Assembly (NCBI GenBank): GCA_030690545.1
Contig: JAUYGN010000074.1
Span: forward strand, 1 to 44,064
Length of the DNA: 44,064 nt
Source: Solirubrobacteraceae bacterium
GTDB lineage: Bacteria; Actinomycetota; Thermoleophilia; Solirubrobacterales; Solirubrobacteraceae
Direction of reading: 5' to 3'
The notes under the pieces are model-generated. The model was not told the origin of the DNA, did no database searches, and was given only the letters and a program-made list of their open reading frames with translations. This document shows, one piece after another, positions 25,312-29,622 of this stretch; the stretch's first letter is position 1, and every line of letters starts with the position of its first letter. The position numbers were made by a program, and so were the translations under genes.

Positions 25312-25719
25312 GTGCGCATCACCGTCCTCGCCGTCGGGCGTCTGCGCCCGCCGTACGCCGACGATGTCCAGCACTACCTCAAGCTGCTGGCGCGCCACGC
25401 GCGCGTCGAGATGATCGAGGTGCGCCAGGAGGAGCGCGTCACCGGGCGCATCCCGCAGCGCGCCTTCGTCTCGCTGCTCGCGCGCGACGGCGAGCAGCTC
25501 AGCTCGCTGTCGTTCAGCCGCTTCCTGGAGGAGCGCCGCCGGCTCGGGCGCGACGTCTGCTTCGTCGTCGGCGGTCCGCCGGGCCTCGAGCTCGCGGACG
25601 TCGATCATCGCTTCTCGCTCGGTCCGCTCACGCTGCCCCACCAGCTCGCCCGCGTCGTCCTGCTCGAGCAGCTCTATCGCGGGCACAAGATCCTCGCGGG
25701 GGAGCCGTACCACTACTGA
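25312..25719 (+). CDS. rlmH: 23S rRNA pseudouridine-1915 N3-methyltransferase
   Basis: RlmH, a SPOUT-class enzyme, methylates pseudouridine 1915 in helix 69 of 23S rRNA. The 135-aa product carries the SAM-binding knot VVGGPPGL and the signature LPHQLARVVLLEQLYRGHKILAGEPYHY-like end (LYRGHKILAGEPYHY). It is about 20 residues shorter than E. coli RlmH, with the reduction in the N-terminal half. The GTG at 25312 is 6 nt after TAGTAT (25300-25305), suggesting a leaderless message. Confidence 0.95.
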   Translation: MRITVLAVGRLRPPYADDVQHYLKLLARHARVEMIEVRQEERVTGRIPQRAFVSLLARDGEQLSSLSFSRFLEERRRLGRDVCFVVGGPPGLELADVDHRFSLGPLTLPHQLARVVLLEQLYRGHKILAGEPYHY

Positions 25720-25743: not shown

Positions 25744-26874
25744 TCAGCGGCGCGTGGTGATGCGGAACGTGTGGCGCAGCGTCTTGCCGCGGCCGGTCGA
25801 CGTGCGCGGCGACGCGTAGAGGCGGTAGGTGCCGGTCCGCAGGCGCTTGCCGCCGACGCGGCCGCTGAAGCGCAGGGAGTTGTGGCCCTGGCGCCCGGGA
25901 TCGGTGTACGAGCCGCTCACGGGTTGGTAGCGCAGGCAGCGCTTGCGGTTGCGATTGGTCCGCGTGAGCGCGCGGCAACTCGAACCCACGCGCCTGCCGA
26001 CCCGCCGCACGGCGACCGTGAAGCGCACGCTCGCGGCGGTGTTGCCGAGCCGGTAGCTGACGCGCGTCGACGGGAAGCTGGTCGTCTTGAATCCGCCAGC
26101 CGGCCGCGCCACGAACGCCGACGGCGACACGTCCAGCGAGGTCAGGACCGGGACCGGAGGGACGATGTTCAGCACGGCGCTGGCGCTCGCCTCCGCGACG
26201 GCGTCGGAGCTGCTCTCCTGCAGCCAGGCGCAGAGCGTGTACTGACCGACGTCGCGGAACGGGCCTGCCAGGCGCGGCAGCCCAAAAGCGCCGCTGGCGG
26301 GCAGGGAGAAGGCGAACGAGTCCGTCGCGGGGTCAGCCGCCCGGCTCTGGCCGCATGGTCCGGCACCGATCGGCTTGGCCTTCGCGAACAGCGTGCGGCC
26401 CAACTCGGTCGTCCCGACGAGCGTCACCGGGACGCCGGCGCCCGGGTGCGCTCTCGGCGGGACGAGCAGCGCGAGCGTCGCGTTGTTGGGGCGGACGTTC
26501 ACGGGCAGGGCGAACTGCTCGCTGGGCGCCGCCGTGGAGCTGCTCGCCAGGTACGCGCACAGCAGGTACGCGCCCGGCTCGCCCTGCTGGGTCACCTTCT
26601 GCGTCCCGGACACGTCACGGAAGAAGAGGCCGGCGCCCGAGTCCGCAGAGTACGACGGTGCGCACGGCACGCCGCCCGCGGGGCGGAACTTCGCGTAGAT
26701 GTGGCTCGTCCCGCTCGTCGTGCCGGTCGCGATGAACGTCATCGGCCGGTCCTCGAGCGCGTCTCCGCCGACGAGCACCACGCTGAGCGCGGCCTGTGCG
26801 GCCGCCGGTGCCAGCGCCAGCGCGGCGACGGTGGCGATCGCCGTCCACGTGGATCTCCTGACGACGCCGCGCAC
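25744..26874 (-). CDS. Secreted two-repeat protein with Solirubrobacterales-type C-terminal module
   Basis: The 376-aa product has a signal peptide ending APAAAQA. Two related modules follow (about residues 35-120 and 140-235), each with a paired-Cys pattern (VPCAPSY to LLCAYL; GPCGQSR to TLCAWL) and a GxY.LCA(W/Y)L strand, probably Ig-like folds with a disulfide. The C-terminal 120 residues (DVSPSAF, VGSSCRALTR, RKRCLRY, TGTYRLYASP) resemble a beta-sandwich module I associate with secreted proteins of this order. Ligand and role are unknown. It converges on rlmH. Confidence 0.8.
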   Translation of the reverse strand: MRGVVRRSTWTAIATVAALALAPAAAQAALSVVLVGGDALEDRPMTFIATGTTSGTSHIYAKFRPAGGVPCAPSYSADSGAGLFFRDVSGTQKVTQQGEPGAYLLCAYLASSSTAAPSEQFALPVNVRPNNATLALLVPPRAHPGAGVPVTLVGTTELGRTLFAKAKPIGAGPCGQSRAADPATDSFAFSLPASGAFGLPRLAGPFRDVGQYTLCAWLQESSSDAVAEASASAVLNIVPPVPVLTSLDVSPSAFVARPAGGFKTTSFPSTRVSYRLGNTAASVRFTVAVRRVGRRVGSSCRALTRTNRNRKRCLRYQPVSGSYTDPGRQGHNSLRFSGRVGGKRLRTGTYRLYASPRTSTGRGKTLRHTFRITTRR

Positions 26875-26927: not shown

Positions 26928-28568
26928 GTGTCCGGTCCCCTCTCAGATCTGCGCGACGCCGTGATCGCCGCGTCTGGTGCCGTCGCCGGGCCGGACGGCG
27001 GCTCGTCCGCGCTGCCGACGCTCGAGCGCCCGAAGAAGGCCGGCTTCGGCGACTACGCGACGAACGCGGCGATGCTGCTCGCGCCCCGCGCGGGCGTCCC
27101 TCCGCGCGAGGTGGCCGGGCGTCTCGCCGCCGAGCTCGAGCGCCGCCTGGGTGACGCGCTCGATCGCGTCGAGATCGCCGGGCCGGGCTTCTTGAACCTC
27201 GTCATGTCCGACCGCTGGTGCGTGGCGGCGCTCGCTCATGTGCTGGAGGCCGGCGAGGCCTTCGGTGGCGGCGGCGCGGTCGAGCGCGCCGAGCGCGTGA
27301 GCATCGAGTTCGTGTCGGCCAATCCGACCGGTCCGATGACGGCCGCCGGCGGGCGCCACGCGGCCTACGGCGACTCGCTCGCACGGCTGCTGCAGTTCAG
27401 CGGTCACGAGGTGACGCGCGAGTACTACATCAACGACATCGGCGGCCAGATACGGCGCCTCGGCGAGTCGATCCAGGCCCGAGCCCGCCGCGAGGAGGTC
27501 CCCGAGGGCGGCTACGAGGGCGACTACGTGCGCGAGCTCGCCGATCGGATCCCCGGCGCCGCGCACGACGACGTGGCCGTCGTCGCCGAGCGCGGCGTCG
27601 AGCTGCTGCTGGATCGGATCCGCGCGTCGATGGAGCGCTTCGGCGTCCAGTTCGACGTCTGGTTCTCGGAGGGCTCGCTGCATGCCGGCGAGCCGTCGGC
27701 CGTGCGCCGCGCGTTCGCGCAGCTCGAGCAGCGCGGCGAGAGCTACCGCGCGGAGGGCGCGCTGTGGCTGCGCACGAGCGCGCACGGCGAGCCGAAGGAC
27801 GACGTGCTCGAGCGCTCGACGGGCGAGCCCTCGTACTTCGCGTCGGACATCGCCTACCACCTCGACAAGCTCGAGCGCGGCTTCGATCGGCTGATCGACG
27901 TCTGGGGCGCCGATCACCATGGTCACGTCGCGCGGATGCAGGCGGCGTTCGCGGCGCTCGGTGCGCCGGAGGGCGCGATGGAGCTGATCATCATGCAGTT
28001 CGTCAACCTCGTCGAGCGCGGCGAGCGCGCGTCGATGTCCAAGCGGCGCGGCGACTTCGTCACGCTCGACGACCTCGTCGCGCAGATCGGCGTCGACGCG
28101 GCGCGCTTCTTCATGCTGCAGCGCTCGCACGACACGACGGTCGACCTCGACCTCGACCTCGCGCGCGAGCAGTCCAGCGACAACCCGGTCTACTACGTGC
28201 AGTACGCGCACGCGCGGATCGCGTCGATCCTCGCCAAGGCGGGCGGCATCTGGCGCGTCACGAGCGCCCTCGAGGAAGCACCCCGCTACTCGGGCTCGCT
28301 GCAGGCCGCCGAGCGGACGCTCGCCAAGAAGCTGCTCGCGTTCCCCGACGAGATCGCCGAGGCGACCGCGCGCCGGGCGCCGCACCGGATCGCCGTCTAC
28401 GCGCTCGAGCTCGCGCAGACGTTCACCGCGTTCTACCGCGACTGCCAGGTCGTCGGCGCCGAGGGCGAGGGCGTCGAGTCCGTCCGGCTGGCGCTCAGCG
28501 TCGCGACGCAGCGGACGATCGCGCGCGCACTGGACCTGCTCGGGGTCAGCGCGCCGAGCAAGATGTGA
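26928..28568 (+). CDS. argS: Arginyl-tRNA synthetase with altered HIGH motif
   Basis: ArgRS charges tRNA-Arg. The 546-aa protein has the N-terminal Add-1 domain, the class I core (VSANPTGP, REYYINDIGGQIRRLG, FASDIAYHLDKLERG, DVWGADHHGHVARMQ), a KMSKS-like loop (RASMSKRRGDFVTLDDL) and the C-terminal anticodon-binding DALR domain (NPVYYVQYAHARI). The HIGH site, normally LHVGHGR after NPTGP, reads MTAAGGR (residues 137-143), so both signature His are missing. The reading frame is intact on both sides. The GTG is 6 nt after TACTCT (26916-26921), implying a leaderless mRNA. Confidence 0.96.
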   Translation: MSGPLSDLRDAVIAASGAVAGPDGGSSALPTLERPKKAGFGDYATNAAMLLAPRAGVPPREVAGRLAAELERRLGDALDRVEIAGPGFLNLVMSDRWCVAALAHVLEAGEAFGGGGAVERAERVSIEFVSANPTGPMTAAGGRHAAYGDSLARLLQFSGHEVTREYYINDIGGQIRRLGESIQARARREEVPEGGYEGDYVRELADRIPGAAHDDVAVVAERGVELLLDRIRASMERFGVQFDVWFSEGSLHAGEPSAVRRAFAQLEQRGESYRAEGALWLRTSAHGEPKDDVLERSTGEPSYFASDIAYHLDKLERGFDRLIDVWGADHHGHVARMQAAFAALGAPEGAMELIIMQFVNLVERGERASMSKRRGDFVTLDDLVAQIGVDAARFFMLQRSHDTTVDLDLDLAREQSSDNPVYYVQYAHARIASILAKAGGIWRVTSALEEAPRYSGSLQAAERTLAKKLLAFPDEIAEATARRAPHRIAVYALELAQTFTAFYRDCQVVGAEGEGVESVRLALSVATQRTIARALDLLGVSAPSKM

Positions 28569-28612: not shown

Positions 28613-29083
28613 CTACCGGTCGTAGCGCGCGAGGTCGGCCTCCAGCCGCGCCTCGTCGGTGTCGCTGAGGCCATCGTCGGCGGGGGTGTCGCCGGCTCCG
28701 ATGCCGGCCGGCGAGCGACGGCGCCAGCGCGGCGCCAGCAGCACGAGCGTCGCGACGAGGATCGCCCCCAGCGCCAGCGGGATCGCGTATGCGGTCAGCC
28801 CGACGCCGCTGGTCTGCGGAGTCGCGAGCACATCGATGCCGTACTGCGCGACGAGCGCCTGCTTGATCTGCTCCTTGGTCTGACCCTCGGCGATCAGCTC
28901 GCGGATGAACGCCCGCTGGCTGTCGGGCTGCGCGCCCTCGGCGATGTTCAGCGGCACCCGGCAGGTCACGCACATCACCTCGTCCTCGATGTCGACGAGG
29001 TCGGTCTTCGGAGCGGCGGCCAGCGCGGCGGGCGCGAGCGCGGTCGCGATCAGCACTGCCGCGAGCGCGAGCGCGCGGGTCAC
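28613..29083 (-). CDS. ccmH: Cytochrome c maturation protein CcmH
   Basis: CcmH is a membrane thioredox protein that prepares apocytochrome for haem attachment. The 156-aa product has a signal/first helix, the outer Cys pair in EDEVMCVTCRVPLNIAEG, the three-helix segment FIRELIAEGQTKEQIKQALVAQYG, and a membrane helix (YAIPLALGAILVATLVLLAP) followed by an acidic cytoplasmic tail. The GTG (29081-29083) overlaps the ccmG stop by 4 nt. The usual LRCxxCQ pattern is here VMCVTCR. Confidence 0.92.
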   Translation of the reverse strand: MTRALALAAVLIATALAPAALAAAPKTDLVDIEDEVMCVTCRVPLNIAEGAQPDSQRAFIRELIAEGQTKEQIKQALVAQYGIDVLATPQTSGVGLTAYAIPLALGAILVATLVLLAPRWRRRSPAGIGAGDTPADDGLSDTDEARLEADLARYDR

Positions 29084-29622
29084 GACTGCGCCTTCGCCAG
29101 CGCGCGGTCGATGAAGGCCTGGTCGATCGGGCCCCGGAAGATCGAGACGATCCTGCCGCGGCGATCGATCACGAACGTCTCGGGCACGTAGGTCGTGCCG
29201 TAGCGCTTGGCGAGCTTCGTACCGATGTCGCGCAGGCTCGGGAAGCTGACGCCGTGGTCCTGGATGAACTTCAGCGACGCCGGCGCCGCGTCGTCGTACG
29301 TCACGCCGAGCACGGTGCCCTGCCCCGAGCTCGTCAGCTTCTTGTGGGCGCGCTCGAGGACCGGTGCCTCGGCCTTGCACGGCCCGCACCACGAGGCCCA
29401 GAAGTTCAGCACGACGATCTGACCGCGCAGGTCGGCGACCGATCGCGTGCCGCTCTCGCCGAGCACCGGCAGCGGGCTGCTCGGCGCGGGCGGGAAGTCG
29501 CCGCGCGCGATCGCCTGCTCGATCGAGTCGTCGGTCGCGCCCGACAGCAGCCCGTAGGCGAGCAGCCCGATCAGGCTCGCCGCAGCGAGGGTCGCGAGCG
29601 TCGGGACGAGGAGGCGCTTCAT
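29080..29622 (-). CDS. ccmG: Thioredoxin-like cytochrome c maturation protein CcmG/TlpA
   Basis: The 180-aa product has an N-terminal membrane anchor and an extracellular TlpA-type thioredoxin domain with active site [15 protein letters not shown] and the cis-Pro region [14 protein letters not shown]. It would reduce the disulfide of CcmH or of the apocytochrome. On the minus strand TAGGCT (29632-29637) lies 9 nt before the ATG, so the leader is minimal. It starts the ccmG-ccmH unit, separate from ccmE-ccmF on the other strand 1.6 kb away. Confidence 0.93.

What the first reader, a model, noticed from the sequence alone, without database searches (positions are those of the whole stretch)
27321..27365. 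Arginyl-tRNA synthetase without HIGH histidines
After NPTGP, where class I ArgRS has LHVGHGR, this protein has MTAAGGR. The two His that contact ATP are Thr and Gly, yet all other motifs, including a MSK loop, are kept and the frame is clean. Either the lineage uses other residues or the enzyme is altered in function.
Basis: partly seen in the sequence, partly recalled or inferred. Interest (0 to 1): 0.7.

Follow-up and report, generated by a model that had tools for sequence, protein, structure and literature searches.

The report
Arginyl-tRNA synthetase lacking its HIGH motif
This soil actinobacterium charges its arginine tRNAs with a single, otherwise normal enzyme whose textbook 'HIGH' catalytic signature has lost both histidines and its glycine, and related bacteria from several phyla have made the same kind of change more than once, so a motif taught as near-invariant is replaceable in this branch of the family.

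Summary
In detail: ORF 26928-28568 (+) is a full-length ArgRS (546 aa) reading NPTGP-MTAAGGRH where canonical relatives read NPTGP-LHVGHARN. It is not a sequencing error (three species of the genus share it), not a decayed copy (dN/dS about 0.3, every other domain and motif intact, confident ArgRS fold) and not shadowed by a canonical enzyme: the 98.6%-complete genome has no other argS. It is also not peculiar to this genome. Of 112 ArgRS sampled in the class, 56 lack both HIGH histidines, 18 only the second, 2 only the first. Histidine-free versions (TVGN, TLGN, TAAS, TMAN, VVVQ, NVVN) also occur in Chloroflexota, Patescibacteria, Bacillota and Armatimonadota, all in the 'NPTGP ... MSK' type of ArgRS; 20 sampled ArgRS of other types all keep HxGH. 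A single origin of the histidine-free state is rejected (AU p about 1e-46). Best reading: the housekeeping ArgRS, working with a small polar residue in place of the His side chain plus the MSK lysine. This is a new variant of a known kind. The closest precedent is the GXHH motif of IleRS2, which this same genome also has. The catalytic detail is inferred; no assay was possible.

The parts
26928..28568 (+). argS, arginyl-tRNA synthetase, 546 aa, GTG start
   Evidence: NCBIfam TIGR00456 367 bits vs cut-off 261.65; only argS in the genome
26967..27203 (+). Arg_tRNA_synt_N domain (PF03485), residues 14-92
   Evidence: Pfam 66 bits
27306..27335 (+). strand and loop before the motif, residues 127-136 (E127 ... 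N132-P-T-G-P136); E127 and N132 invariant in the 31-sequence alignment, arginine/adenylate-site positions
   Evidence: yeast N153 equivalent by alignment and PMC5919687
27339..27350 (+). T138-A-A-G141 in place of the class I H-x-G-H motif, at the N-terminus of helix 139-157
   Evidence: sequence; alignment; helix from AlphaFold model, pLDDT 93
27357..27359 (+). H144, where canonical relatives mostly have Asn or Gly; more frequent in histidine-free motifs, but the link is not significant once kinship is allowed for
   Evidence: 49/83 vs 6/145; phylogenetic pairs 3.3 vs 0.1, p 0.25
28032..28055 (+). MSK loop, residues 369-376 (S-M-S-K372-R-R-G-D), counterpart of KMSKS; K372 retained
   Evidence: K372 in 82 of 83 H1-less sequences
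28197..28565 (+). DALR_1 anticodon-binding domain (PF05746), residues 424-546
   Evidence: Pfam 104 bits

Best explanation
This is the genome's only, working, housekeeping arginyl-tRNA synthetase, in which the class I HIGH signature has been replaced by T-A-A-G. The fold, arginine pocket, MSK loop and anticodon domain are ordinary. In this NPTGP/MSK type of ArgRS the two imidazoles are not indispensable. A small hydrogen-bonding residue at motif position 1 or 4 (here Thr138), at the N-terminal tip of helix alpha-1, together with the backbone there and Lys372 of the mobile MSK loop, holds the ATP phosphates during arginine activation. Shown here: sequence, sole copy, purifying selection, recurrence across phyla, rejection of a single origin, K372 retention, and a polar residue at position 1 or 4 in all 83 His1-less sequences. 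Inferred: that the protein is catalytically active, and which atoms do the work.
For: Only argS in a 98.6%-complete genome: one PF00750 locus (two stretches of one ORF), one TIGR00456 match, and NF045898 hits only this locus. One-contig relatives with VAAS, TTAS or TVAS motifs also have a single argS (G087, G098, G136, G157). dN/dS 0.29-0.37 within the genus with the motif held. Full domain set. AlphaFold model pLDDT 93 matching Campylobacter ArgRS 3fnr at Z 41.5, 2.3 A over 437 residues. In the class 56/112 lack both His; TVGN/TLGN/TAAS/TVGA/TMAN/VVVQ/NVVN in other phyla. Single origin rejected, delta lnL 260, AU 1.3e-46. Position 1 or 4 is T/S/N/Q/H in 83/83. Actinomycete isolates with H-x-G-G and one argS, e.g. 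Mycobacterium, Rhodococcus, Corynebacterium, show that the second His alone is dispensable.
Against: No enzyme assay exists. In several class I synthetases, mutating the first His cuts the activation rate about 1000-fold (PMC10485003), so an unusual compensation must exist, and no single compensating residue passed a kinship-corrected test. The polar rule rests on few independent origins (p 0.017 without correction). Most H-less genomes are MAGs, so a missed second argS cannot be excluded one by one; g15 relatives do have a second, canonical-type ArgRS, and the Conexibacter isolate has an ArgS-like catalytic-domain paralog (relatives' copies).
Confidence: 0.8

Rival explanations
1. Inactive or repurposed copy: this protein no longer charges tRNA and another ArgRS does the work.
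For: Loss of the catalytic signature; relatives of genus g15 carry an H-less copy plus a HIGH-bearing E. coli-type ArgRS.
Against: No second argS in this genome at 98.6% completeness; single-contig H-less relatives also have only one; purifying selection and all other motifs intact.
Confidence: 0.06
2. Assembly or sequencing error at 27335-27350.
For: Draft genome of 149 contigs.
Against: The same residues with different synonymous codons occur in independent genomes of the genus (L004, L005) and the frame is open throughout.
Confidence: 0.01
3. The changed motif was selected as resistance to a natural adenylate-site inhibitor of ArgRS, as GXHH is in IleRS2, and switches back when the pressure is gone. 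This concerns why the motif changed, and is compatible with the best explanation.
For: Direct precedent: GXHH in IleRS2 raises mupirocin Ki up to 1000-fold, arose at least twice and reverted once (PMC10485003); this genome's IleRS has GVHH; the ArgRS motif also switches repeatedly.
Against: No inhibitor of this kind acting on ArgRS was identified here; H-less motifs also occur in lineages such as Patescibacteria with no obvious exposure; drift under relaxed constraint explains the pattern equally well.
Confidence: 0.12
4. The seven-codon block was moved between relatives by short-tract gene conversion rather than by repeated point changes. This concerns how the motif spread, and is compatible with the best explanation.
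For: The window differs from L009 in 7 of 8 motif residues but 8 of 26 flanking ones; flanking DNA is near-identical among relatives.
Against: Intermediates exist (MTAAGARH, LTVAHGRH, ITVAHARN, MHIGHARH); within the family one clade of H-less rows is not rejected, so no transfer is needed there; recurrence in other phyla is unexplained by it.
Confidence: 0.15

Closest known systems
IleRS2 with the non-canonical GXHH (G/AXHH) signature (Nat Commun 2023, PMC10485003)
   Same: A class I synthetase whose HIGH motif is altered at the most conserved positions 1 and 3, tolerated only in one subtype of the enzyme, gained more than once and reverted at least once.
   Different: There the His moves from position 1 to 3 and takes over the same role; here no histidine remains in the four-residue motif, and no drug link is known.
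Canonical NPTGP/MSK-type bacterial ArgRS (TIGR00456), e.g. Campylobacter jejuni 3fnr
   Same: Same catalytic and anticodon domains, fold, NPTGP loop and MSK lysine; 35% structural identity, Z 41.5.
   Different: HIGH present there (LHIGHAR), TAAG here.
Actinomycete ArgRS with H-x-G-G (Mycobacterium, Corynebacterium, Streptomycetaceae)
   Same: Second His already replaced by Gly.
   Different: First His and the Gly at position 3 are kept.
E. coli/yeast-type ArgRS with the HIGH-loop lysine (Sekine et al. 2001, cited in PMC8318970)
   Same: ArgRS is known to re-distribute catalytic residues: there the KMSK lysine is lost and a lysine before HIGH replaces it.
   Different: The opposite case: those keep HxGH (20 of 20 sampled ArgRS of other types) and lose the KMSK lysine.
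Bacterial TrpRS of the TIGN type (from memory; the paper was not read here)
   Same: Thr at position 1 as in T-A-A-G.
   Different: Keeps Gly at position 3 and Asn at 4.

Membership tests
Arginyl-tRNA synthetase (TIGR00456, argS equivalog) | Score above the curated cut-off over the whole model | tested here: met
   367.3 vs 261.65 bits, residues 26-546
Arginyl-tRNA synthetase (TIGR00456, argS equivalog) | N-terminal Arg_tRNA_synt_N, class I catalytic (R) and DALR anticodon domains | tested here: met
   PF03485, PF00750, PF05746 all over cut-off
Arginyl-tRNA synthetase (TIGR00456, argS equivalog) | ArgRS fold | tested here: met
   Model pLDDT 93; top 15 structural matches are all ArgRS, Z 27-41.5; next is CysRS, Z 26
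Arginyl-tRNA synthetase (TIGR00456, argS equivalog) | Charges tRNA-Arg with arginine | not testable with these tools
   Being the sole argS in the genome implies it
Class I synthetase HIGH signature (H-x-G-H) | His at positions 1 and 4, Gly at 3 | tested here: not met
   T-A-A-G; a PROSITE-style class I pattern written from memory also fails, while 142 of 145 His1-keeping relatives match
Class I synthetase KMSKS signature | Lysine of the MSK loop | tested here: met
   K372 present
IleRS2-like GXHH altered motif | His swapped into position 3 | tested here: not met
   Ala at position 3
NrtL (NF045898), ArgS-related non-synthetase | Score above the family cut-off of 340 bits | tested here: not met
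   134 bits

The most novel reading that the evidence does not exclude
In NPTGP/MSK-type ArgRS the HIGH motif is a reversible, dispensable feature: it has been lost and also re-gained several times, arginine activation runs without any HIGH histidine, and the switching is driven by selection (for example by natural adenylate-mimic inhibitors), as in IleRS2.
Probability: 0.25. Interest if true: 0.8.

Novelty: new variant of a known kind. Interest (0 to 1): 0.55.

Why it matters
HIGH is one of two motifs that define class I synthetases and is used to argue about their origin and transition-state chemistry. An essential synthetase that lacks both histidines and the glycine, in many lineages and with canonical sister sequences 60-65% identical, gives a natural series of mutants for asking what HIGH really does. 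It also shows that motif-based calls of 'inactive' synthetase can be wrong.

Tried and rejected
Second argS in the genome: none. Sequencing error: excluded by two sister species. Compensated local frameshift turning HVGHARN into TAAGGRH: by eye on the codons, a one-base shift does not give the observed residues. A single compensating residue: scan of all columns; Q398, R/K374 after MSKR, His144 and others are enriched, but none survives kinship-aware pairs. Coupling that held up best: loss of His1 with replacement of the motif Gly (18/83 vs 144/145 keep Gly; pairs 6.5 to 0, median p 0.03) and, more weakly, with His2 loss. My first reading that the window genus is nested inside a HVGH clade, hence a recent local loss, was withdrawn: one clade of H-less sequences within the family is not rejected (AU 0.57). 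Loss-only evolution fits much worse than loss plus regain (lnL -82.5 vs -64.2), but on one approximate tree, so I do not rest on it. Literature searches found no paper describing HIGH-less ArgRS in the library held; most subscription papers are not in it. Atom-level inspection of the active site was not possible because coordinates are not given.

Full report
What is there. The window ORF 26928-28568 (+) codes for a 546-residue protein that scores 367 bits against the NCBI argS equivalog (cut-off 262), with all three expected Pfam domains. Codons 27336-27359 read M137-T-A-A-G-G-R-H144 straight after NPTGP. In canonical relatives this block is L-H-V-G-H-A-R-N. So position 1 (His to Thr), position 3 (Gly to Ala) and position 4 (His to Gly) of the HIGH signature are all replaced. 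E127 and N132 before the motif, the Y303/D307/Y310 and GADHH regions and the MSK lysine K372 are retained.

It is real. The two other species of the genus (82% and 75% identical) read MTAAGGR and MTAAGAR with different synonymous codons. Within the genus dN/dS is 0.29-0.37, as for a constrained gene. The AlphaFold model has mean pLDDT 93, places the motif at the start of helix 139-157, and its best structural matches are all ArgRS: C. jejuni 3fnr Z 41.5, 2.3 A over 437 residues; yeast, P. horikoshii, E. coli and T. thermophilus ArgRS Z 29-33.

It is the only ArgRS. PF00750 finds one locus, the full-length argS model one, and the NrtL model only this locus again in a genome rated 98.6% complete. 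Four one-contig relatives with histidine-free motifs (G087, G098, G136, G157) also have one argS each. Exceptions exist nearby and should be kept in mind: genus g15 carries an H-less ArgRS plus an E. coli-type one with HIGH, and Conexibacter-like genomes carry an extra protein with an ArgS-like catalytic domain and HIGH but no detected DALR or N-terminal ArgRS domain. The window genome has neither.

It is widespread. Among 112 class members read, 56 lack both histidines, 18 only the second, 2 only the first, 36 none. Variants are TAAG, TVAS, VAAS, TAAS, TVAT, TVGS, TIGS, TVAA, TTAS, VVAN, TAAQ and others. Outside the class: Chloroflexota TVGN, TLGN, TAAS, TAGN, TVGA, TVGH; Patescibacteria TMAN, TLGN; Bacillota VVVQ; Armatimonadota NVVN; Bacteroidota SVGH; Actinomycetes HIGG/HLGG. 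All of these are the NPTGP type. Twenty ArgRS of other types sampled (HIGH-loop lysine with KTR, or MSSR-type) all keep HxGH. These samples are not random: loci were the best matches and many genomes are MAGs.

It arose more than once. With the motif columns masked, a tree of 228 NPTGP-type sequences needs at least 14 changes of His1 and 17 of His2 (labels shuffled: mean 67 for His1). A mixture-model tree of 47 rows needs 7 changes of His1. Holding all H-less sequences of the class in one clade costs 260 lnL units (AU 1.3e-46), and including other phyla 300 (AU 3e-67). Inside the window's own family one origin is not rejected, so parallel change at that depth is not claimed. A loss-only model fits worse than loss plus regain by 18 lnL units, but on an approximate tree; regain remains a suggestion.

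What goes with it. Loss of His1 goes with replacement of the motif Gly: Gly is kept in 18 of 83 His1-less against 144 of 145 His1-keeping sequences; among kinship-independent pairs 6.5 to 0. It goes more weakly with loss of His2 (78/83 vs 50/145). K372 of the MSK loop is present in 82 of 83. Every one of the 83 has T, S, N, Q or H at position 1 or 4; when position 1 is Val, position 4 is always S, N or Q (14 of 14). A basic residue right after MSKR (42/83 vs 8/145) and His144 (49/83 vs 6/145) are enriched but not significant after correction for kinship. Other class I synthetases of the genome that were read keep ordinary signatures (ValRS HMGH, LeuRS HIGH, MetRS HLGH, TyrRS HLGH, CysRS HVGN, TrpRS HLGN), except IleRS, which has GVHH; GluRS was not read.

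How it most likely works. In class I enzymes the HIGH histidines act on the ATP phosphates in the transition state (PMC5919687), and removing the first usually costs about 1000-fold (PMC10485003). ArgRS is known to shift catalytic duties: the E. coli/yeast type lost the KMSK lysine and uses a lysine before HIGH (Sekine 2001, as cited in PMC8318970; the role of that lysine is from general knowledge of that paper's title and topic). The NPTGP type keeps the KMSK lysine and, I infer, can afford to give up the imidazoles, with a small hydroxyl or amide at the helix tip plus K372 doing the job. That is an inference from conservation; no coordinates with ligand were available.

Compared with what is known. 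The nearest described case is GXHH in IleRS2 (PMC10485003): an altered HIGH confined to one subtype, gained at least twice, reverted once, and linked to mupirocin hyper-resistance. The ArgRS case is more radical (no histidine left in the motif) and taxonomically broad, but without any known drug link. It is a member of ArgRS by every test but the HIGH motif itself. I found no description of it in the library searched, which lacks most subscription papers, so it may be known to specialists.

Noticed in passing
G000:C90:10256-12100 (-), locus L273: The genome's IleRS carries GVHH (PPTANGPPGVHH), the GXHH altered signature described for mupirocin-hyper-resistant IleRS2.
   Followed up: partly
L053, L054, L056, L057, L058, L059, L060: Relatives (genera g10, g2, g14) carry extra 560-600 aa proteins with the ArgRS catalytic domain, an intact HIGH and an SSSKG- or ASSEG-like loop; the two scanned (L053, L059) have no detected DALR or N-terminal ArgRS domain and score far below the argS cut-off. 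Function unknown; possibly an arginine-activating enzyme not acting on tRNA.
   Followed up: partly
L063, L064, L065, L066: Genus g15 genomes (G154, G232) have two full ArgRS: an H-less NPTGP type and an E. coli type with HIGH and KTR.
   Followed up: partly
L068: argS of the one-contig genome G009 is broken into two frames at a repeat-like insert (GVRSRVLR..NTRDLTP) between catalytic and anticodon domains.
   Followed up: no
25312-25719 (+); 28613-29077 (-); 29080-29622 (-): Neighbours of argS: an RlmH-type SPOUT methyltransferase, a CcmH-type cytochrome c maturation protein and a thioredoxin-like protein; an intervening 376 aa protein (25744-26874, -) has no Pfam match.
   Followed up: partly
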